64,000 nt of DNA, from positions 62,001 to 126,000 of the forward strand of contig NZ_JAHKPH010000014.1 in assembly GCF_018860385.1 (NCBI RefSeq), in the 5' to 3' direction. Below, in pieces: positions 39,646 to 48,882 of the stretch. A program made the translations under genes and the position numbers. Numbering within the stretch: the first letter of the stretch is position 1; each line of letters begins with the position of its first letter. The DNA comes from Reinekea forsetii (GTDB lineage Bacteria; Pseudomonadota; Gammaproteobacteria; Pseudomonadales; Natronospirillaceae). The notes under the pieces are model-generated. The model searched no databases and was not told the origin of the DNA. It worked only from the letters and a program-made list of their open reading frames with translations.

Positions 39646-41712
39646 TCAATCACTTACAGAATTATTAAGCTGGCCCATATTAATAGCCACGTCCGCACTT
39701 TTTATAGTTTCAGGGCGATGGGCAACAATGATGCGTGTCACGTCCATTTTCTTTATATTGCTATTCACAACGGACTCACGCTCAACATCTAAGTGACTGG
39801 TGGCTTCGTCTAGAAATAATAATTTTGGTTCACGGTAAAGTGCTCGCGCTAGGATCACGCGTTGTTTTTGGCCGCCGCTGAGAGAGGTGCCCATGTCCCC
39901 GACCAAGGTATTGTATCGCATGCCAAACTTTAAAATATCTTCATGCACGGCTGCTTTTTGGGCGCATAAGGCTATTTTCTCGAAATCGAGTTTAGGATCA
40001 AAGCAGGCTATATTGTCAGCTACCGAACCCGACAAAAGCTGATCATCTTGCATCACCGCGGCTATTTGGGTGCGATAATCATCTCGCTTAGTAATGTCCA
40101 CTCCATCAACTAAGACTTGCCCACTATTAGGCTTTAACAAACCCATCATTACTTTCAGTAAGGTAGTTTTGCCGCAGCCACTTGGGCCGACGATAGCAGC
40201 CGATTGACCTGCGGGGATGCGAAAGCTAATATTTTCAAAGATAGAATCGTCTGTTTCAGAATAACGGAAAGTTAAGTTCTTAACTTCAATAGATCCTTTA
40301 ACATCAGATAGATGTTGAAGGTTTGCGGTATGTCGGTCTACATCTTCGGCTTCGGTAAAGGTTATATCAGCAAGCCGATCAAGATGAAGGCCAATCATCT
40401 TGAATTCGATGAGCATATCTATTAGCCCATCCATACGAGCAACAAACTGGTTTTTATAGCTCATAAACGCATAGAGCATACCCAAAGACATTAGGTTACC
40501 CATCACCGACGTTGCCAATAGGTATATAACGACTATGTTTTCTATACCAAATAGCAGACTATTTAGGGTTTCATAGGCAATGCCCCATTTTGCAACGGAC
40601 ACGTCGGTATTTAGAGCTTCAGTGTATTTATTTTGCCATAAATTTTGTCGGTCATTCTCCCGCTGAAAAAGTTTAACCGTTTGAATGGCTCGAACAGACT
40701 CCATAAAATTAGAATCTTCTTTGGCATGTGCAATTATACTTTCTTCAGATAAGCGACGAAAAGGGCGATAAAGAGCAAAGCGCAACAAGGTGTATAGGCC
40801 AGCGATGACTAAGACAACCAAGGCAACTTTTACAGAGTATATAAACATCGCCGTTAACGTGATTACAGCCATTACGCCATCGACTATGGAGCTAACTAAG
40901 CCCGTGGTAAGCAAATCTTTAACGGACTGTAACGACCCAAAACGAGAAACAACATCACCTATATGGCGTTTTTCAAAATAGTCTAAAGGCAACCTAATAA
41001 GGTGACGAAATAAATTGGCGGCCATCTGATAGTTCAATTTTGTCGATAGATGCAAGATCACAAAGCTACGCAGAGTATCAGTTGCGGTTTGCAACAGCAT
41101 AAGTAAGCCAAACCCCAGCGCCAAGACCAACAATAAACTGCCGTCGTTCCGTAACAGCACATCATCAACAACCGTTTGCATATAAAAAGGTGCAACCACT
41201 GCAAAGAGCTGCAATAGAAAGGACAGCGCCACAATGGTGATTATATTTCGCTTAAGTCCAAAAATACGCTGCCAAAAGTGAGACAAGGTCAGCTTTTGTC
41301 GCACCTCCTTTCTCTCGAATTTTGCAGTGGGTGTTAACTCAAGCGCAATTCCCGTGAAGTGCGCTGAAAACTCAGTGTGGCTATAAGTGACTTCTCCGAT
41401 CGCAGGATCAAGAACCGTAACTTTGTTTTTGCCTACGGCCTTTAAAACAACAAAGTGGTTCATATCCCAATGCAAGATGCATGGGAGTTGAAGCTTAGAT
41501 AAATCAGCAAGGTCTAATTGCAAAGCTCGACCCGCTAATTCTAACTTCGCAGAGATATCCATGAGCTGCTTTAAGTTTGTGCCTTGTGAAGAAATCTTAA
41601 ATTGATTTCTTAAATTTGAGAGGTCAGATACATAGCCATAGTGGCCTGCGATCATGCCGACGCAGGCAAGACCACATTCTGAAATTTCCGTTTGTAGTAT
41701 TAGCTTAAGCAT
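39646..41712 (-). CDS. Peptidase-containing ABC exporter (PCAT), intact copy
   Basis: 688 residues. The N-terminal C39 peptidase is complete: Gln7, Cys13 in 'EISECGLAC', His86 in 'MNHFVVL', Asp102 in 'LDPAIGE'. Six membrane helices follow (about 155-440), then the ATPase with Walker A 'GPSGCGKTTL', signature 'LSGGQKQR' and Walker B 'LLFLDEA'. Such exporters cut double-glycine leaders and export the core peptide. This is the only full-length copy of three in the island. No good ribosome site is seen before ATG 41712; GGAAAAG lies rather far upstream. Confidence 0.93.
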   Translation of the reverse strand: MLKLILQTEISECGLACVGMIAGHYGYVSDLSNLRNQFKISSQGTNLKQLMDISAKLELAGRALQLDLADLSKLQLPCILHWDMNHFVVLKAVGKNKVTVLDPAIGEVTYSHTEFSAHFTGIALELTPTAKFERKEVRQKLTLSHFWQRIFGLKRNIITIVALSFLLQLFAVVAPFYMQTVVDDVLLRNDGSLLLVLALGFGLLMLLQTATDTLRSFVILHLSTKLNYQMAANLFRHLIRLPLDYFEKRHIGDVVSRFGSLQSVKDLLTTGLVSSIVDGVMAVITLTAMFIYSVKVALVVLVIAGLYTLLRFALYRPFRRLSEESIIAHAKEDSNFMESVRAIQTVKLFQRENDRQNLWQNKYTEALNTDVSVAKWGIAYETLNSLLFGIENIVVIYLLATSVMGNLMSLGMLYAFMSYKNQFVARMDGLIDMLIEFKMIGLHLDRLADITFTEAEDVDRHTANLQHLSDVKGSIEVKNLTFRYSETDDSIFENISFRIPAGQSAAIVGPSGCGKTTLLKVMMGLLKPNSGQVLVDGVDITKRDDYRTQIAAVMQDDQLLSGSVADNIACFDPKLDFEKIALCAQKAAVHEDILKFGMRYNTLVGDMGTSLSGGQKQRVILARALYREPKLLFLDEATSHLDVERESVVNSNIKKMDVTRIIVAHRPETIKSADVAINMGQLNNSVSD

Positions 41713-41899: not shown

Positions 41900-42258
41900 C
41901 TTAAGGTATGGACTATGTGGCTTAACCGCTAAAAAACCTATCTAGCTATAATTTAACTTCCTGATCACCTAACCTGGATTGTGACTTTTTTACCTGCTGA
42001 CTTAAAATCAGAAAATTATTATGAGTCCAATGCTAAGAACAAGGCAGTTGAAGCTGAGGCAAGCCTTACAGCCCTAACTGTAAAGCTCCAACTTCGTAGC
42101 AATACCTATGAGCTACTTTAAAAGGTTTCTTGTGATGAACTTTGAATTAGTCGCTTAAATTGGAGACAGCTGATACTTAATCATGGTAACTCGCTCTAAT
42201 ACCTATATGGACAAGGTCCAATTCTGAAATCTCGATTTATAGCATAATTTTCCAAATT
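41900..42258 (-). pseudogene. Decayed third copy of the PCAT C39 domain
   Basis: This otherwise gene-free stretch aligns by eye, on the minus strand, with the first about 360 bp of both other PCAT copies. It shares 'GATTTCAGAATTGG' (start of the C39 domain), 'CTCCAATTTAAG', 'TCACAAGAAACC', 'CTACGAAGTTGGA', 'GCTTCAACTGCC' and 'AGCATTGGA' in the right order and spacing. Stops and indels are scattered through it and the ATG is lost. It is an old duplicate, far more diverged than the truncated copy at 43631. Confidence 0.7.
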
Positions 42259-42645: not shown

Positions 42646-42888
42646 TCATGTACCCTGAGGCAAGTTGTGAGCTTGTTTTCTAGCAGCTCGATCTGCTGAT
42701 CTAGCATCTGCGCAACTCGAAGTTACCGTAATACTAGTACTAGTACTTTTAACAAATACCACTCCTTTGCTCGAACTTGCTGTCGTATTATTGGTAACAC
42801 TACTAGCACCGCTGCTATTACACTGTTCAAGGACAGTAGCTCCACCAAATACTTCTTTTAAATTCAATTCATTTACGATAATTATCAT
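42646..42888 (-). CDS. Double-glycine precursor peptide P6
   Basis: 80 residues. The leader ends in 'LNLKEVFGG', a classic double-glycine cleavage site (after residue 16), followed by a core starting ATVLEQCNSSG. The core is rich in Ser and Thr with two Cys. AAGGGG lies seven bases before the ATG and overlaps the stop of P5, so the two are translationally coupled. Cys positions and the motifs 'CNSSGAS' and 'CADAR' parallel P5 ('CNSIGAS', 'CGEAR'), so they are paralogues. Likely cut and exported by the PCAT. Confidence 0.75.
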   Translation of the reverse strand: MIIIVNELNLKEVFGGATVLEQCNSSGASSVTNNTTASSSKGVVFVKSTSTSITVTSSCADARSADRAARKQAHNLPQGT

Positions 42889-42897
42889 ATCAACCCC

Positions 42898-43137
42898 TTA
42901 AGTATTGCGAGCTTCGCCACAAGTCATGGTATATGTTGTGGAGCTTGATGTGCTGGCGGTACCAGTAACCTTACCAACAGTCTCGTTTACAGACAGTTTG
43001 TTCGTAACGGTTATAGTAACCTTATCATTGTCGCTTGCTCCTATTGAATTGCAATAATTGGCTACTAGTGACTTAACTTCGTCTGAACTTCCAGAACCAC
43101 ATACTTCAGCTAATTCAATCCCAACTAATTCTTTCAT
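42898..43137 (-). CDS. Double-glycine-like precursor peptide P5
   Basis: 79 residues. The leader 'MKELVGIELAEVCGSG' has the usual amphipathic ELxxIE pattern, but the cleavage site reads GS-G rather than GG. The core contains two Cys ('NYCNSIGAS' and 'TMTCGEARNT') and Ser/Thr-rich beta segments. It is preceded by stem-loop A1. The ribosome site AAAAGG is only two bases from the ATG, as in the repeat copy at 45030. With P6 it may form a two-peptide product (inference). Confidence 0.68.
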   Translation of the reverse strand: MKELVGIELAEVCGSGSSDEVKSLVANYCNSIGASDNDKVTITVTNKLSVNETVGKVTGTASTSSSTTYTMTCGEARNT

Positions 43138-43157
43138 TTCCTTTTCATTTTATAATT

Positions 43158-43197
43158 TACAACCCCAGTCATCTTGGCGATTTCCTCAAAGGTTGTA
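43158..43197 (-). promoter_or_regulatory. Stem-loop A1 in the leader of P5
   Basis: TACAACC (43158-43164) pairs perfectly with GGTTGTA (43191-43197). The 26-nt loop holds the core GTCATCTTGG (43168-43177), shared with the B elements. It lies about 20 bp before the P5 start on the transcript strand. Confidence 0.65.
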
Positions 43198-43254
43198 TTG
43201 GTTTACAAGAAAGTGAACCATTTCACTCGCTCGATTTGCTCTATAGCAAATTTT

Positions 43255-43407
43255 TTAAAGTATATTCACATTAATTGGTCTTGGAGTCGGCAACAAAAGC
43301 TTCTTGCCACCTACTTTTGGCAATGATCTACCTTTGTGTTTTGGCGTTACAGCACTTCGACCAGCGCCTTTTACTTCTACTAGATTTTTAGGACCAATAT
43401 CTTCCAT
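43255..43407 (-). CDS. Small basic proline-rich peptide P4 (50 aa)
   Basis: A 50-residue gene read from the minus strand. It begins MEDIGPKNLVEVKGAGRS and ends TPRPINVNIL. 'NLVEVKGAG' resembles a double-glycine leader with GA or AG at the cleavage site; a later 'KVGG' is an alternative. The core is basic and proline-rich. AAAAGGA lies nine bases before the ATG. A copy (P2) differing by one codon lies at 45148-45300. Translation is supported by this conservation and by the ribosome site. Confidence 0.65.
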   Translation of the reverse strand: MEDIGPKNLVEVKGAGRSAVTPKHKGRSLPKVGGKKLLLPTPRPINVNIL

Positions 43408-43437
43408 GTGTTTTCCTTTTCAAGTTTTATTGTTAAA

Positions 43438-43463
43438 CTCGAAAGACCTCATTCCTTTTCGAG
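43438..43463 (-). promoter_or_regulatory. Hairpin in the P4 leader
   Basis: CTCGAAA (43438-43444) pairs with TTTCGAG (43457-43463), enclosing a purine-rich AGGAATGAGG loop on the transcript strand. It is identical in the second module (45331-45356). Confidence 0.5.
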
Positions 43464-43472
43464 TGTTGGTTA

Positions 43473-43516
43473 GGGGCGCTTCCGGTCATCTTGGCGGATA
43501 TCTCAAGGGGCGCCCC
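43473..43516 (-). promoter_or_regulatory. Stem-loop B1 in the leader of P4
   Basis: GGGGCGC (43473-43479) pairs with GCGCCCC (43510-43516), and an inner stem TCCG (43481-43484)/CGGA (43495-43498) closes the conserved loop GTCATCTTGG. The core is the same as in stem-loop A but the outer stem is wholly different and still fully paired. Confidence 0.7.
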
Positions 43517-43599
43517 GCTTTTATCACCATCAAACGTGTGATTCCTTTCTACTCGTTTATCATCTCTAATTTTCACTATCGAAATTATGCAGCCAAGCA

Positions 43600-43648
43600 C
43601 TACAACCTACCTTTTAAACTGAATAGGGGCTCAAATAACCATTCTAAT
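43600..43648 (-). pseudogene. 3'-terminal remnant of an hlyD copy
   Basis: On the minus strand these bases encode 'LEWLFEPLFSLKGRL' followed by a stop, identical in protein to the end of the intact hlyD at 45493. It is joined directly to the truncated PCAT gene, in another reading frame, at about 43648. Confidence 0.8.
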
Positions 43649-44176
43649 AGGGAAGGGCGCAACCACCGCAAAGAGCTGTAATAAAAAAGACAGCGCCACA
43701 ATGGTGATTATATTTTGTTTAAGTCCAAAAATACGTTGCCAAAAGTGAGACAAGGTTAGCTTTTGTCGCACTTCCTTTTTCTCGAATTTTGCAGTGGGTG
43801 TTAGCTCAAGTGCAATACCGGTGAAGTGCTGTGAAAACTCCGCATGACTATAAACCACCTCACCAATAGCCGGATCAAGAATCGTGACTTTGGATTTACC
43901 AACAGCCTTTAATACAACAAAGTGATTCATGTCCCAATGTAAGATGCAAGGGAGTTGGAGCTGTGACAAATCTGCAAGGTCTAACTGCAAAGCTCGACCC
44001 GCTTGCTCTAACTTCGCAGCTATATCCATGAGCTGCTTTAAGTTGGTGCCTTGCAACGAAATCTTAAATTGATTTCTTAAATTTGAGAGGTCAGATACAT
44101 AGCCATAGTGACCCGCGATCATACCGACGCAGGCAAGACTACATTCTGAAATTTCGGTTTGTAGTATTAATTTCAT
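43631..44176 (-). CDS. Truncated PCAT: C39 peptidase domain only
   Basis: About 181 residues from ATG 44176. It is nearly identical to the N-terminus of the intact exporter and keeps the whole C39 site (Gln, Cys in 'SECSLAC', His in 'MNHFVVL', Asp in 'LDPAIGE'). It runs into the first membrane helix and stops after 'VVAPF' followed by the foreign tail PIRMVI, which is read out of frame from an hlyD remnant. It may be dead, or it may still act as a free leader peptidase, since the catalytic domain is undamaged. Confidence 0.8.
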   Translation of the reverse strand: MKLILQTEISECSLACVGMIAGHYGYVSDLSNLRNQFKISLQGTNLKQLMDIAAKLEQAGRALQLDLADLSQLQLPCILHWDMNHFVVLKAVGKSKVTILDPAIGEVVYSHAEFSQHFTGIALELTPTAKFEKKEVRQKLTLSHFWQRIFGLKQNIITIVALSFLLQLFAVVAPFPIRMVI

Positions 44177-44188
44177 CAAGTTTTTTAT

Positions 44189-44392
44189 CTACCTTATTTC
44201 GCCAACAAATTCGAAATCGAAATATTTGAATACTGTAAGCAGGATAGCGAAGTAAATGTCCATAAATTGAAGTCGATAAAACAATGATTCTTCTAGCTCA
44301 ACACTGTTGTCTACGTAAAAAATAATAGCAGCGATATCTCATACGAATGCTTCGCGCTGCTAAAGTAGGGCAGGGACTACAATTCTCTTCAT
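44189..44392 (-). pseudogene. Possible broken small gene
   Basis: From ATG 44392 one frame reads MKRIVVPALL, a stop, six residues, a second stop, then 49 open residues ending 'FKYFDFEFVGEIR'. The last part is protein-like, with a hydrophobic 'DIYFAILLTVF' segment. It ends just before the truncated PCAT. The rest of the 320-bp gap shows nothing else. Reading it as a broken accessory or immunity gene is tentative. Confidence 0.35.
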
Positions 44393-44501
44393 AAATCGCC
44401 CAAACAAAGACCCTCTAAAAATTTAGCACTACTTGGCTAGCAGATTAATTAGGCAGAAAAAATGTTACATCCCAACTGTTAGATTACTCACCTCCCTAAG
44501 T

Positions 44502-44690
44502 CTACTCTTCCAAGGAGGATTTATTTACTCTTAGATTCCTCCCTAGTTTTGGCCAATAAACAATTAAAAAATGCGTAATCAGTAATCCCACCAGTGCAAC
44601 TGTATTAAGCATCTCACCTGATTGATAATTAACTACAATCACAAATGACAGCATAAATAGAATTTCTAAAATCCCCCTTAAATTCATCAA
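44502..44690 (-). CDS. Small two-helix membrane protein, immunity-like
   Basis: 62 residues with two hydrophobic segments (about 8-22 and 28-46) and a basic tail ('KLGRNLRVNK'). Either the first or second ATG may be used (MMNL). Its size and its place immediately downstream of precursor P3 suit a bacteriocin immunity protein, which usually sits next to its peptide gene. That role is inferred from context only. Confidence 0.55.
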   Translation of the reverse strand: MMNLRGILEILFMLSFVIVVNYQSGEMLNTVALVGLLITHFLIVYWPKLGRNLRVNKSSLEE

Positions 44691-44767
44691 ACCTTTTCCT
44701 CCTAACTTAATATTTTATTAAACTCGGTATAAATCAACTAAAACTTAAAAACTCAATAGCCAACTTA

Positions 44768-44784
44768 GGGGGAGAGCCCCCCCC
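44768..44784 (-). promoter_or_regulatory. GC hairpin after peptide gene P3
   Basis: GGGGG and CCCCC arms flank a short AGAG loop (on the transcript strand, loop CTCT) 13 bp after the P3 stop. Similar GC hairpins follow P6 and P1. There is no T run. Confidence 0.5.
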
Positions 44785-44796
44785 TTCCTTACTAAA

Positions 44797-45024
44797 TTAG
44801 TTACATGTTGCTATTGAAACAAGACCAGCGGCCATAGAAACATATGGAGCTTTTTTCGCTGAAAGTACTGCAACATACTGTGAACCTCTGCAAATATCTT
44901 TCTTTGCCTTCTTAGAATCCCCCTTAATTGCAGAAGTGGCCCAACCAGGGTGGCCACTATAGCCACCGTTAATCAACTTGCCACCATTCACTTCTCTTAC
45001 TAAATTCAGGCTTAATTCTTTCAT
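44797..45024 (-). CDS. Double-glycine precursor peptide P3
   Basis: 75 residues from ATG 45024 (77 from ATG 45030; the second ATG has the better spacing to AAAAGG). The leader reads 'KELSLNLVREVNGG', a textbook double-glycine leader, followed by a core starting KLINGGYSGHPGW. The core has two Cys ('DICRGS' and the C-terminal 'ATCN'), a lysine-rich middle and a hydrophobic, glycine- and alanine-rich end ('YVSMAAGLVSIA'), like class II bacteriocins or microcins. Exported by the island's PCAT (inference). The membrane protein at 44502 is its likely immunity partner. Confidence 0.8.
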   Translation of the reverse strand: MKELSLNLVREVNGGKLINGGYSGHPGWATSAIKGDSKKAKKDICRGSQYVAVLSAKKAPYVSMAAGLVSIATCN

Positions 45025-45050
45025 TTTCATTTCCTTTTCATTTTAAAATT

Positions 45051-45090
45051 TACAACCCCAGTCATCTTGGCGATTTCCTCAAAGGTTGTA
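45051..45090 (-). promoter_or_regulatory. Stem-loop A2 in the leader of P3
   Basis: Same perfect 7-bp outer stem and core as A1, at the same distance before the P3 start, although the peptides P3 and P5 themselves are unrelated in their cores. Confidence 0.65.
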
Positions 45091-45147
45091 TTGGTTTACA
45101 AGAAAGTGAACCATTTCACTCGCTCGATTTGCTCTATAGCAAATTTT

Positions 45148-45300
45148 TTAAAGTATATTCACATTAACTGGTCTTGGAGTCGGCAACAAAAGCTTCTTGC
45201 CACCTACTTTTGGCAATGATCTACCTTTGTGTTTTGGCGTTACAGCACTTCGACCAGCGCCTTTTACTTCTACTAGATTTTTAGGACCAATATCTTCCAT
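45148..45300 (-). CDS. Small basic proline-rich peptide P2 (50 aa)
   Basis: Second copy of P4, read from the minus strand, with one residue changed (Ile to Val in 'TPRPVNVNIL'). It has the same ribosome site and the same upstream hairpins. It lies 190 bp after hlyD and 120 bp before P3. The near identity of the two copies contrasts with the drift in the flanking hlyD tails. The peptide may be a toxin, an inducer or a chaperone-like partner; sequence alone does not decide. Confidence 0.65.
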   Translation of the reverse strand: MEDIGPKNLVEVKGAGRSAVTPKHKGRSLPKVGGKKLLLPTPRPVNVNIL

Positions 45301-45365
45301 GTGTTTTCCTTTTCAAGTTTTATTGTTAAACTCGAAAGACCTCATTCCTTTTCGAGTGTTGGTTA

Positions 45366-45409
45366 GGGGCGCTTCCGGTCATCTTGGCGGATATCTCAAG
45401 GGGCGCCCC
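45366..45409 (-). promoter_or_regulatory. Stem-loop B2 in the leader of P2
   Basis: Identical to B1 in stem, inner stem and loop core GTCATCTTGG. Two bases outside the element are among the few that differ from copy 1. Confidence 0.7.
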
Positions 45410-45492
45410 GCTTTTGTCACCATCAAACGGGTGATTCTTGTCTGTTCGTTTATCATTTCTAATTTTCACTATCGAAATCATGCAGCCAAGCA

Positions 45493-46794
45493 TTACAACC
45501 TACCTTTCAAACTGAATAGTGGCTCAAATAGCCATTCTAATAAGGTTCGTTCTGCTAATTTAATATCGGCTTCTAACGAAATACCTTCTTTAAGGCTCAA
45601 CGGTTGGCCGTATGCGTCAATATTCTGTTGGGCTAGCTTTGCAGTCACTCTGTACATGGGCTCTTGTGCATTGACAGCCAAACCTGTTAGTTCATTCGGT
45701 AACAATACGGTTTGAGAGACATTGGTTATCGTTGCATCGTATTGGCCAAACTTTTGGAAACTAAAGGCCGAGTAACGTATTTTGACTGTTTGATCTTTTT
45801 CAACAAAACCAATTGCACGAGCGGGCACCAATAACTCTGCCTCTAGCTCGCTGCCCTCTGGGGTTAAAGTCAGTAACGGGATATTACTATGTGCTTCTTG
45901 CCCTTCACTTATCTGAATATTTGAAACAACACCTGCGCTACTTGCCTTTAATATGTACGCCTGCTGGCCGTAAAGCTGGGTAATACTTTGCGCAATAGCC
46001 GAAAGGCTGGCTTCTAATTGGTCTTCACTGTCCATTTGCTCAAAGCTTAAAACCGTGCTTTGTAGTTGAAGTGTTTCTAGCGTAATTTTTTGAGCATCGG
46101 AAGTACGAGCGATCTCTTGGAGTTGGGACTTTAGCGACAGTACTTTTTCTAAGGCTGCATCGGCATCGCTTTGGGTGGCTAAGGCCTGATCAGCTAATGA
46201 CTCCATATTTGCTAACTGTCTTGAGGCTAAATCAAGTTGTTGCGTGATTAGAGTTCTCTGTTTAGTTAAGTGTTTTAGATCACTTTTTATGGCCACAACG
46301 CGCTTGGTTAGCTCATTCGCCTTACCTGCATATACTTCTGGCAAACGGCTAAGTTGATTGGACAGTGTATTCCTTTGGGAGAAATACTCATCTAGCATGA
46401 GTGTTTCTAAGTGATCACCATTAGCTAGAATTTGATCGCCGTTTATTAAGACGAGTGCTTGATCTTTCACAACCTTGTCGCCTTCTTTTACGAAGATCTC
46501 GCGAACAATACCTGAGCGCGATGCATATACTTTTAACACTCCGGTATTAGGTACTAGAAAGCCCTGCACAGTTTCTTTACGCGCATAGCTGCCATTGATT
46601 AACAGAACCATAGCGGCAGTCACAAACAATATGAGGGTGATCGTTATAATGGAATACGACAGTGGCGGAATTACTAGAACATCGCCTAACAATCTGTCTT
46701 GTTGTTTTTCAACAGCTTGCTTGCGAAATAAACCATGGCGCTCGTCTTTTTGCTCACTAGTACCTAGTGATGCATTGTCCATGTGAGTGGTCAT
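45493..46794 (-). CDS. HlyD-family membrane fusion (adaptor) protein
   Basis: 433 residues. One membrane helix near the N-terminus (about 43-65), a biotinyl-lipoyl-like start ('GVLKVYASRSGIVREIFVKEGDKV'), a long coiled coil (about 130-270) and a returning lipoyl half ('ILKASSAGVVSNIQISEGQEA'), the standard HlyD/CvaA plan. It links the PCAT in the inner membrane to a TolC-like channel, which is not in the window. AAAGGG lies six bases before the ATG. Transcribed toward the peptide genes. Confidence 0.9.
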   Translation of the reverse strand: MTTHMDNASLGTSEQKDERHGLFRKQAVEKQQDRLLGDVLVIPPLSYSIITITLILFVTAAMVLLINGSYARKETVQGFLVPNTGVLKVYASRSGIVREIFVKEGDKVVKDQALVLINGDQILANGDHLETLMLDEYFSQRNTLSNQLSRLPEVYAGKANELTKRVVAIKSDLKHLTKQRTLITQQLDLASRQLANMESLADQALATQSDADAALEKVLSLKSQLQEIARTSDAQKITLETLQLQSTVLSFEQMDSEDQLEASLSAIAQSITQLYGQQAYILKASSAGVVSNIQISEGQEAHSNIPLLTLTPEGSELEAELLVPARAIGFVEKDQTVKIRYSAFSFQKFGQYDATITNVSQTVLLPNELTGLAVNAQEPMYRVTAKLAQQNIDAYGQPLSLKEGISLEADIKLAERTLLEWLFEPLFSLKGRL

Positions 46795-48646: not shown

Positions 48647-48724
48647 CTAGCGTCCCCCTGGACAGATAGATCCAGCTTTACTCCAACTTGATTTAGCGCA
48701 ATCCCCAGGTCTAGTCTTACTCAC
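48647..48724 (-). CDS. Possible -1 frame extension of P1, or coupled 25-aa ORF
   Basis: In the -1 frame relative to P1 the sequence continues past the P1 stop for 25 residues beginning SKTRPGDCAKSS, with two Cys and a Trp, to a TAG at 48647. It can be reached by slipping at C-CCA-AAA in P1, or by starting at a GTG (48724) that overlaps the P1 stop as GTGA. It looks like a plausible bacteriocin tail, but it could also be chance. Confidence 0.35.
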   Translation of the reverse strand: MSKTRPGDCAKSSWSKAGSICPGGR

Positions 48725-48882
48725 TTTCTTCTTTTTCTTTTTGGGACATAAACCTCTACAAAGTAAAAGGCGCCACCAGGTGCATCATCACCCTTCATCC
48801 AACCTCCACCTGTACCATCTGTCCCTCTATCATGCATACCACCAGAGACAAGCTCAGATTTTTCCATATTTATTTCATTCAT
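48721..48882 (-). CDS. Double-glycine precursor peptide P1
   Basis: 53 residues, read from the minus strand. The leader 'MNEINMEKSELVSGG' is a typical double-glycine leader, with core MHDRGTDGTGGGWMKG and a strongly basic end (KRKRRK). AAAAGGA lies nine bases before the ATG. The gene is the first of the minus-strand island. It carries a candidate -1 slippery heptamer near its end (see the entry at 48647). Export by the PCAT is inferred from the leader. Confidence 0.75.
   Translation of the reverse strand: MNEINMEKSELVSGGMHDRGTDGTGGGWMKGDDAPGGAFYFVEVYVPKRKRRK

What the first reader, a model, noticed from the sequence alone, without database searches (positions are those of the whole stretch)
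43158..45409. Stem-loop with a conserved core and two compensating outer stems before four peptide genes
Elements at 43158-43197, 43473-43516, 45051-45090 and 45366-45409 share the core GTCATCTTGGCG...CTCAA (plus strand). A-type copies enclose it with TACAACC/GGTTGTA, B-type copies with GGGGCGC/GCGCCCC. The outer arms have no sequence in common yet pair perfectly in both types, which is the pattern expected when structure is selected. Each copy is in the leader of a small peptide gene with a double-glycine-like leader. It could be a cis-regulatory RNA, a processing signal, or a folded DNA site used for cassette duplication. I know of no named family with this core.
Basis: partly seen in the sequence, partly recalled or inferred. 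Interest (0 to 1): 0.78.

Follow-up and report, generated by a model that had tools for sequence, protein, structure and literature searches.

The report
Conserved RNA-like leaders before exported peptides
In a marine bacterium and its relatives, genes for small exported peptides (probably bacteriocins) are preceded by a foldable hairpin with a fixed core and changing but still pairing arms, which looks like a new, narrowly distributed control element in the messenger RNA.

Summary
The four elements lie at the stated coordinates, but the genes run on the minus strand, between hlyD and a C39-peptidase ABC exporter gene. Copies 1 and 2 are one 97% duplication, so the window holds two independent types, A and B, not four.

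Covariance-model searches gave 15 elements in 7 loci of 5 genomes: four of one genus (one named Reinekea) and one of another genus of the family. The core persists while the outer arms change and still pair (7-10 of 11 pairs in 13 of 13 rows). 13 of 15 stand before a small peptide gene, 17-28 nt (A) or 65-69 nt (B) from its start. Three genus members without the hlyD gene lack it. I accepted no hit outside the family in the order and class samples. Rfam has no match. Loop-length changes argue against coding.

Weak points: double-sided changes are mostly the A-versus-B contrast; wobble pairs favour sense-strand RNA for A, not B; no RNA data exist.

Best explanation: a structured intercistronic mRNA leader that controls peptide expression through its conserved core, trans factor unknown. 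The cassette-duplication site idea is not supported.

The parts
45493..46794 (-). hlyD-type membrane-fusion protein gene, upstream gene of the leader-peptide block
   Evidence: HlyD_3 and type_I_hlyD hits
45366..45409 (-). element B, copy 2 (core hairpin H2)
45416..45435 (-). hairpin H1 upstream of B copy 2
   Evidence: alignment A5 and pair counts
45330..45357 (-). hairpin H3 between element B and the peptide gene, with an AAAAGGAATG motif (copy 2)
45148..45300 (-). 50-aa peptide gene pepB, GA-type leader, proline-rich C-terminus
45127..45144 (-). hairpin H1a upstream of A copy 2
   Evidence: alignment A6 and pair counts
45099..45126 (-). hairpin H1b upstream of A copy 2
45051..45090 (-). element A, copy 2 (core hairpin H2)
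44797..45030 (-). 77-aa double-glycine-leader peptide gene
43634..44179 (-). truncated C39 peptidase copy (aa 1-182 of the exporter)
   Evidence: Peptidase_C39; tblastn
43603..43653 (-). hlyD 3' tail (last 17 codons) at the duplication joint
43473..43516 (-). element B, copy 1
43523..43542 (-). hairpin H1 upstream of B copy 1
43437..43464 (-). hairpin H3 (copy 1)
43255..43407 (-). 50-aa peptide gene pepB, copy 1
43234..43251 (-). hairpin H1a upstream of A copy 1
43206..43233 (-). hairpin H1b upstream of A copy 1
43158..43197 (-). element A, copy 1
42898..43137 (-). 79-aa peptide gene with GS-type leader after A copy 1
39646..41712 (-). C39-peptidase ABC exporter gene, downstream end of the block
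   Evidence: Pfam Peptidase_C39, ABC_membrane, ABC_tran

Best explanation
The elements are structured intercistronic mRNA leaders. In the transcript from hlyD towards the C39 exporter, the leader in front of each of the first two peptide positions (B, then A) folds into a type-specific set of hairpins. The core hairpin is common to both: an 8-11 bp outer helix of free sequence, an asymmetric internal loop UGAG...GACY, and a small inner AUC/GAU hairpin capped by about (C)GSCAA. It sits at a nearly fixed distance from the peptide start codon. Its job is most likely to set how much peptide is made relative to the exporter, at the level of translation or local mRNA stability, through recognition of the invariant internal loop by a trans-acting factor (protein, small RNA or ligand) shared by A and B. 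Shown: the element, its conserved core, pairing arms, accessory hairpins, near-fixed spacing and restriction to this gene block in the genomes searched. Inferred: that it acts as RNA, that it regulates expression, and that a trans factor reads the loop.
For: A model built from three genomes (R1) found further copies at E 3.0e-17 and 7.3e-14 (G096) and at 2.4e-7, 2.6e-7 and 4.7e-4 (second loci of G004 and G000), each in a peptide leader of an hlyD/C39 block. In the end 15 elements in 7 loci of 5 genomes. On 13 rows 74.8% of cells pair against 62.4 (sd 2.2) in shuffles, and double-change cells are 24 against 13.1 (sd 3.0), both 0 of 500 shuffles as high; the best slid register has 54.5% paired. 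The arms of the copy in another genus (GGCGGTCTC/GAGACCGCC) are new and pair 9 of 9. 13 of 15 precede a small ORF; stem to start codon is 17-28 nt in the 7 A rows and 65-69 nt in the 6 B rows measured. Type A has two more hairpins (95.1% of cells paired over three helices, slid registers at most 47.0%), type B two others (81.5% over three helices, slid at most 47.3%). In type A leaders G.U cells are 36 and A.C cells 1, the sense-strand RNA pattern. In the genus 4 of 7 genomes have both a close hlyD and the element, and 3 of 7 have neither.
Against: Type B does not show the sense-strand pattern: G.U 9 against A.C 20 over its three helices (one row is out of register there), 4 against 13 in the core helix with that row put right. 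Most double-sided changes are the A-versus-B contrast; in the type A core helix there are none. Two of five shuffle measures are not exceeded: pairs with a double change (296 of 500 shuffles as high) and pair types (55 of 500). On the A leader the pairing excess over shuffles is small (95.1 against 93.7%, 41 of 500 as high). Crossing A and B arms still gives a mean of 5.93 of 11 pairs and a maximum of 10. Single-sequence folding is weak in several copies: z runs from -4.51 to -0.02 and 5 of 13 are below -2. By R1 alone the copies G004A' (E 0.237) and G009B (E 0.026) are no better than the false hits in G013 (0.0106) and G019 (0.0395); I accept them for their core, arms and place beside hlyD sequence. 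G005B has no recognisable peptide gene after it. No conserved pairing of the leader with the ribosome-binding site was seen by eye, so no switch can be drawn. There are no transcript data.
Confidence: 0.55

Rival explanations
1. Intercistronic stabiliser or processing site without a specific reader: the hairpins only protect the peptide part of the mRNA from decay or set the 5' end after cleavage, so that the substrates are made in excess over the exporter.
For: Place between hlyD and the peptide genes, several hairpins in a row, no terminator-like site on the sense strand (both sites are on the other strand), promoter-like matches not above chance (9 against 6.6, sd 2.7). Outer arms free to vary fits a mechanical role.
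Against: A mechanical hairpin would not need a nearly invariant loop of about 20 nt shared by A and B and by another genus.
Confidence: 0.2
2. Folded-DNA or recombination site for duplication or exchange of peptide cassettes.
For: The region after A is unrelated even between two genomes of one species, and the homology between the two window copies ends 26 bp beyond A. Element-bearing blocks are repeatedly duplicated with truncated exporter genes. The wobble test does not favour one strand overall: G.U 18, A.C 16.
Against: The other break lies inside hlyD and the joint is to a C39 fragment, away from any element. The elements measured have one orientation and a near-fixed distance to the start codon. 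Type A wobble pairs (36 to 1) would be G.T mismatches in DNA. Recombinase genes were not sought systematically.
Confidence: 0.1
3. A remnant of coding sequence (a decayed leader, or the ISAKMTG-like reading that runs through B).
For: In the window and G096 an ORF of 55 aa runs through B, and A and B share a frame reading EExAKMTG / EISAKMTG by eye.
Against: The loop changes length by 1 to 2 nt between copies (A4), which breaks that frame in G004B', G000B', G009B and G000A'; conservation follows pairing instead.
Confidence: 0.03
4. B and A are a translation-coupled device: a ribosome finishing (or pausing on) the proline-rich end of pepB sets how the A leader folds and thus how much of the variable peptide is made.
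For: In the window, G096 and the second G000 locus the first hairpin of the A leader starts within a few nt of the pepB stop; pepB ends are proline-rich.
Against: G005 has A without a recognisable pepB, in the second G004 locus A follows hlyD and not pepB, and in G004 the gap from the pepB stop to the hairpin is longer.
Confidence: 0.07

Closest known systems
Cis-regulatory structured RNA leaders in general (riboswitches, protein-binding leaders)
   Same: Conserved core in an internal loop, variable helices that keep pairing, near-fixed place upstream of the start codon, tied to one gene block
   Different: No Rfam 15 family reaches threshold in the window or three related loci; no ligand, factor or expression switch known; narrow distribution in the genomes searched
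Intercistronic stabilising hairpins (REP-type and similar; recalled, not tested)
   Same: Hairpins between genes of one operon whose products are made in unequal amounts
   Different: Here the loop rather than the arm is conserved, and the element is confined to one operon type
attC sites of integrons (recalled definition)
   Same: Arms that pair with little sequence conservation, beside exchangeable genes
   Different: The R boxes as I recall them are not in the arms; the window's duplication breaks are not in the element; it lies in a near-fixed place 5' of the gene
Leader hairpins of the hlyD-peptide-C39 blocks in G010 and G016 (same family, other genera)
   Same: Same place, a hairpin whose arms differ between copies around a partly conserved loop, followed by a second hairpin
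   Different: Core sequence differs and model R2 does not find them

Membership tests
Any Rfam 15 family | Score at or above the family's gathering threshold | tested here: not met
   0 matches in the 64-kb window and in L077, L078, L082; a permissive scan of 44900-45600 gave three matches far below threshold
Cis-regulatory RNA leader (kind, not family) | Base pairing conserved over sequence | tested here: met
   two of five shuffle measures not exceeded, and the contrast is mostly A versus B
Cis-regulatory RNA leader (kind, not family) | Acts as RNA of the sense strand | tested here: inconclusive
   Type A G.U 36 versus A.C 1, type B G.U 9 versus A.C 20
Cis-regulatory RNA leader (kind, not family) | Alters expression of the downstream gene | not testable with these tools
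   Needs reporter fusions and transcript data
Intrinsic terminator or attenuator | G+C-rich stem followed by a U run on the sense strand | tested here: not met
   The two terminator-like sites in 42800-45700 are both on the plus strand
attC site | R boxes RYYYAAC / GTTRRRY in the arms (recalled) | tested here: not met
   Read by eye: A has TTACAAC and GTTGTAA, B arms have neither AAC nor GTT
Kink-turn (box C/D type) | CUGA opposite UGAUGA with a helix on each side (recalled) | tested here: inconclusive
   UGA is present in 12 of 13 rows and GAUGA in 13 of 13, but predicted folds pair AUC with GAU instead and no inner C-stem is consistent

The most novel reading that the evidence does not exclude
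A previously undescribed regulatory RNA class, confined to hlyD-peptide-C39 blocks of one bacterial family, in which two different leaders in one operon display the same invariant internal loop so that one trans factor (an RNA-binding protein, a small RNA, or a signal tied to peptide export or immunity) sets the dose of a constant proline-rich peptide and of a hypervariable peptide together. The G010/G016 leaders would be a diverged second class of the same device.
Probability: 0.35. Interest if true: 0.7.

Novelty: new member of a known kind. Interest (0 to 1): 0.5.

Why it matters
From general knowledge, Gram-negative double-glycine peptide operons are mostly annotated by their exporter and their control is little known. 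A conserved leader gives a handle: it marks substrate genes that are too short and variable to find by homology, predicts that a constant and a variable peptide are co-regulated, and offers a small, testable RNA whose core should bind something. The contrast of free arms and fixed loop is a clean case for compensatory-mutation tests.

Tried and rejected
Named RNA family: no match. Coding remnant: loop-length changes break the frame. Terminator and promoter: not above chance. Strand choice by wobble pairs: undecided overall, 18 G.U to 16 A.C, for sense RNA in A and against it in B. Kink-turn, and pairing of the core with the ribosome-binding site: no consistent pairing by eye.

Wider spread. 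Order sample, 390 genomes with model R2 at E up to 0.01: 22 genomes matched, five of them the element-bearing genomes. I tested the 18 matches of that call outside the accepted sites, plus the G013 and G019 matches: 19 of 20 lie over an open frame of at least 116 aa (some frame, either strand), and none of the 20 has hlyD or C39 in the stretch of about 3 kb held, so I rejected them. The twentieth, G005:C53:227396, holds the core in a non-coding stretch without pairing outer arms and may be a solo remnant or chance. Class sample, 369 genomes at E up to 1e-4: own genome only. Both large searches use stricter filters that lose some weak matches. Viral contigs: 24 stretches with an exact 16-mer of the core; the model scores them at most 22.2 bits, 23 of 24 over the core alone; a longer core pattern had 0 hits. 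Plasmid and phage records: no match to the B leader.

Literature: six full-text searches; only listings with starts of abstracts were seen, no paper was opened, and no title or abstract start listed describes this element. Subscription journals are not covered.

Rows dropped: the two copies in L080, because it repeats L079 at 100% over 11,973 bp near the two ends of one contig, which I read as terminal redundancy. Alignment A4 omits the second window copies of A and B; A7 holds all 15.
Full report
Place. The four elements lie on the minus strand between an hlyD-type gene (45493-46794) and a C39-peptidase ABC exporter gene (39646-41712). Reading with the genes, the order is hlyD, B, a 50-aa peptide (pepB), A, a 77-aa peptide, a truncated C39 copy joined to the last 17 codons of hlyD, B, pepB again, A, two further peptide-sized ORFs and the exporter. 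The 518-bp repeat (43132-43649 and 45025-45542, 97.3%) explains why every element is seen twice. None of the peptides given to Pfam and NCBIfam has a match. The genus is inferred: genome G005, placed in the same genus, is Reinekea sp. G2M2-21. The family name Saccharospirillaceae is recalled.

Chance. The core 11-mer is found without mismatch only at the four sites in the window and six times in the genome. The longer pattern has four perfect and two 3-mismatch sites.

Homologues. A pattern search of 96 relatives showed the A-B pair in two same-genus genomes, G004 and G005 (19 of 96 genomes had some match, and the other single matches were not followed one by one). Seven sequences from G000, G004 and G005 gave alignment A2 and model R1. 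R1 then found, in 7 genomes of the genus, the same-species genome G096 (3.0e-17, 7.3e-14) and second loci in G000 (2.6e-7, 4.7e-4) and G004 (2.4e-7; 0.237 for the A type), and in the family one copy in another genus, G009 (0.026). Hits rejected in the same calls had E 0.0106 (G013) and 0.0395 (G019), so the last two accepted copies rest on core, arms and neighbourhood rather than on R1. Weaker matches in G005 (0.058) and G096 (0.259, 0.599) were not accepted. With model R2, which contains these sequences, 15 elements score 43.0 to 67.2 bits. They lie in 7 loci of 5 genomes: G000 two loci (6 elements), G004 two (4), G096 one (2), G005 one (2), G009 one (1).

Anatomy. Sense consensus: outer arm, YUGAG, 0-5 nt, (A/U)UC, about (C)GSCAA, GAUGAC(C/U), outer arm, with single-row departures (A4). 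Predicted minimum-energy folds of the 13 rows show the outer helix and a 2-4 bp inner hairpin of AUC with GAU. Energies are not uniformly low: z from -4.51 to -0.02, 5 of 13 below -2. The outer helix has 7-10 of 11 standard pairs in one register (G009B one nt shifted). Against this, arms crossed between A and B give a mean of 5.93 pairs and a maximum of 10 (84 crossings), since the arms are of simple composition; B arms crossed with B' arms still give 5-10. The statistical support therefore comes from the counts on the alignment: 74.8% of cells paired against 62.4 (sd 2.2) and 24 double-change cells against 13.1 (sd 3.0), 0 of 500 shuffles as high, all six slid registers lower; pairs with a double change and pair types do not clearly exceed shuffles. 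The CM-fitted alignment of all 15 gives the same picture. Double changes are mostly A versus B. Within A the core helix has only one-sided changes; within B there are 7 double-change cells over three helices against 3.7 in shuffles, 12 of 500 as high.

Other hairpins. Before A lie two conserved hairpins. In one of them the second G004 locus has quite different letters in the same register (22 of 500 shuffles reach the covariation score). Before B lies an ATCAC/GTGAT hairpin, and between B and pepB a hairpin with an SD-like AAAGG or AAAAGG. G005B lacks the 3' arm of that last hairpin and has no recognisable pepB.

Spacing and genes. From the outer helix to the start codon there are 17-28 nt in the 7 A rows measured and 65-69 nt in the 6 B rows measured (13 of 15 elements, the other two being G005B without a clear gene and G009B at a contig end). 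Of the 13 leaders, 7 have GG, 4 GA, 1 GS and 1 AG at the expected place.

Strand. If the sense RNA is the functional form, G.U cells should outnumber A.C cells. They do in the A leader (36 to 1) and not in B (9 to 20, with G009B out of register there; 4 to 13 in the core helix with it in register). These are cells, not events. The test supports sense RNA for A and leaves B open.

Distribution. In the genus 4 of 7 genomes have a close hlyD (E below 1e-200) and the element; the other 3 have neither (one has a distant hlyD match at 4.4e-4). In the family, hlyD at E up to 1e-20 is in 8 of 22 genomes: the four above, G009 (a remnant), and G010, G016 and G018, in which no element was found. G010 and G016 have another hairpin in the same place, with arms that differ between copies. 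I inspected 12 hlyD loci (2 from the family, 10 from outside it): in the 10 from outside, C39 follows hlyD within about 110 bp, with no room for peptide genes (35 of 390 genomes of the order sample had an hlyD at E up to 1e-40). The element thus goes with peptide genes between hlyD and C39. I accepted no hit outside the family.

Evolution of the block. The segment after A is unrelated between the window and G096, the same species, while the exporter side is 97.5% and the hlyD-B-pepB-A side 90% identical. Truncated hlyD copies in front of a leader keep the last 17 codons (window), 24-29 (G010) and 30 (G009), but one in the second G004 locus keeps only residues 12-90 and no tail. The tendency to keep the 3' tail fits, without proving, a leader or its promoter beginning near the hlyD end.

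Mechanism. Shown: conserved core, pairing arms, accessory hairpins, near-constant spacing, one orientation, restriction to the block. Inferred: RNA action, control of expression, a shared reader of the core. A recombination role is weakened because one duplication break is inside hlyD and the joint is to C39, though the other break is 26 bp from A.

Novelty. No Rfam family. In the open-access library six searches listed nothing that describes it (listings only). I class it as a new member of a known kind, a candidate cis-acting RNA motif.

Noticed in passing
43255-43407 and 45148-45300 (-); L079 6535-6687, L037 7978-8121, L078 6916-7071, L077 7819-7971: pepB is a small peptide family with a variable middle and a proline-rich end (LPxPGPV-like, e.g. 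PAPRPVLY). By eye it recalls proline-rich antimicrobial peptides; no PDB sequence match for the window copy.
   Followed up: partly
L118 4553-4660 and 7206-7310 (+), L119 8232-8340 (-): In two other genera of the family the leader at the same place carries a different hairpin with arms that differ between copies and a partly conserved loop, then a second hairpin.
   Followed up: partly
43603-43653; L118 4428-4514; L082 4760-4849: Three truncated hlyD copies in front of a leader keep the last 17-30 codons (two of them also an N-terminal part); a fourth, L078 6352-6588, does not keep the tail.
   Followed up: partly
42003-42251 (-): A second, much decayed C39-peptidase stretch (37.5% identity over 88 aa) between the last peptide ORFs and the exporter.
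   Followed up: no
48721-48882 (-): A 53-aa ORF with a double-glycine-like leader (ELVSGGMH) upstream of the hlyD gene; model R2 found no element before it.
   Followed up: no
G096 contig C1, 20000-32000 and 3480000-3492000 (L079, L080): Two stretches near the ends of one contig are identical over 11,973 bp, probably terminal redundancy of a circular assembly.
   Followed up: partly
G005:C53:227396-227424 (L112 1501-1529, -): A solo copy of the core in a non-coding stretch without pairing outer arms, before a gene I read as antitoxin-like; remnant or chance.
   Followed up: partly
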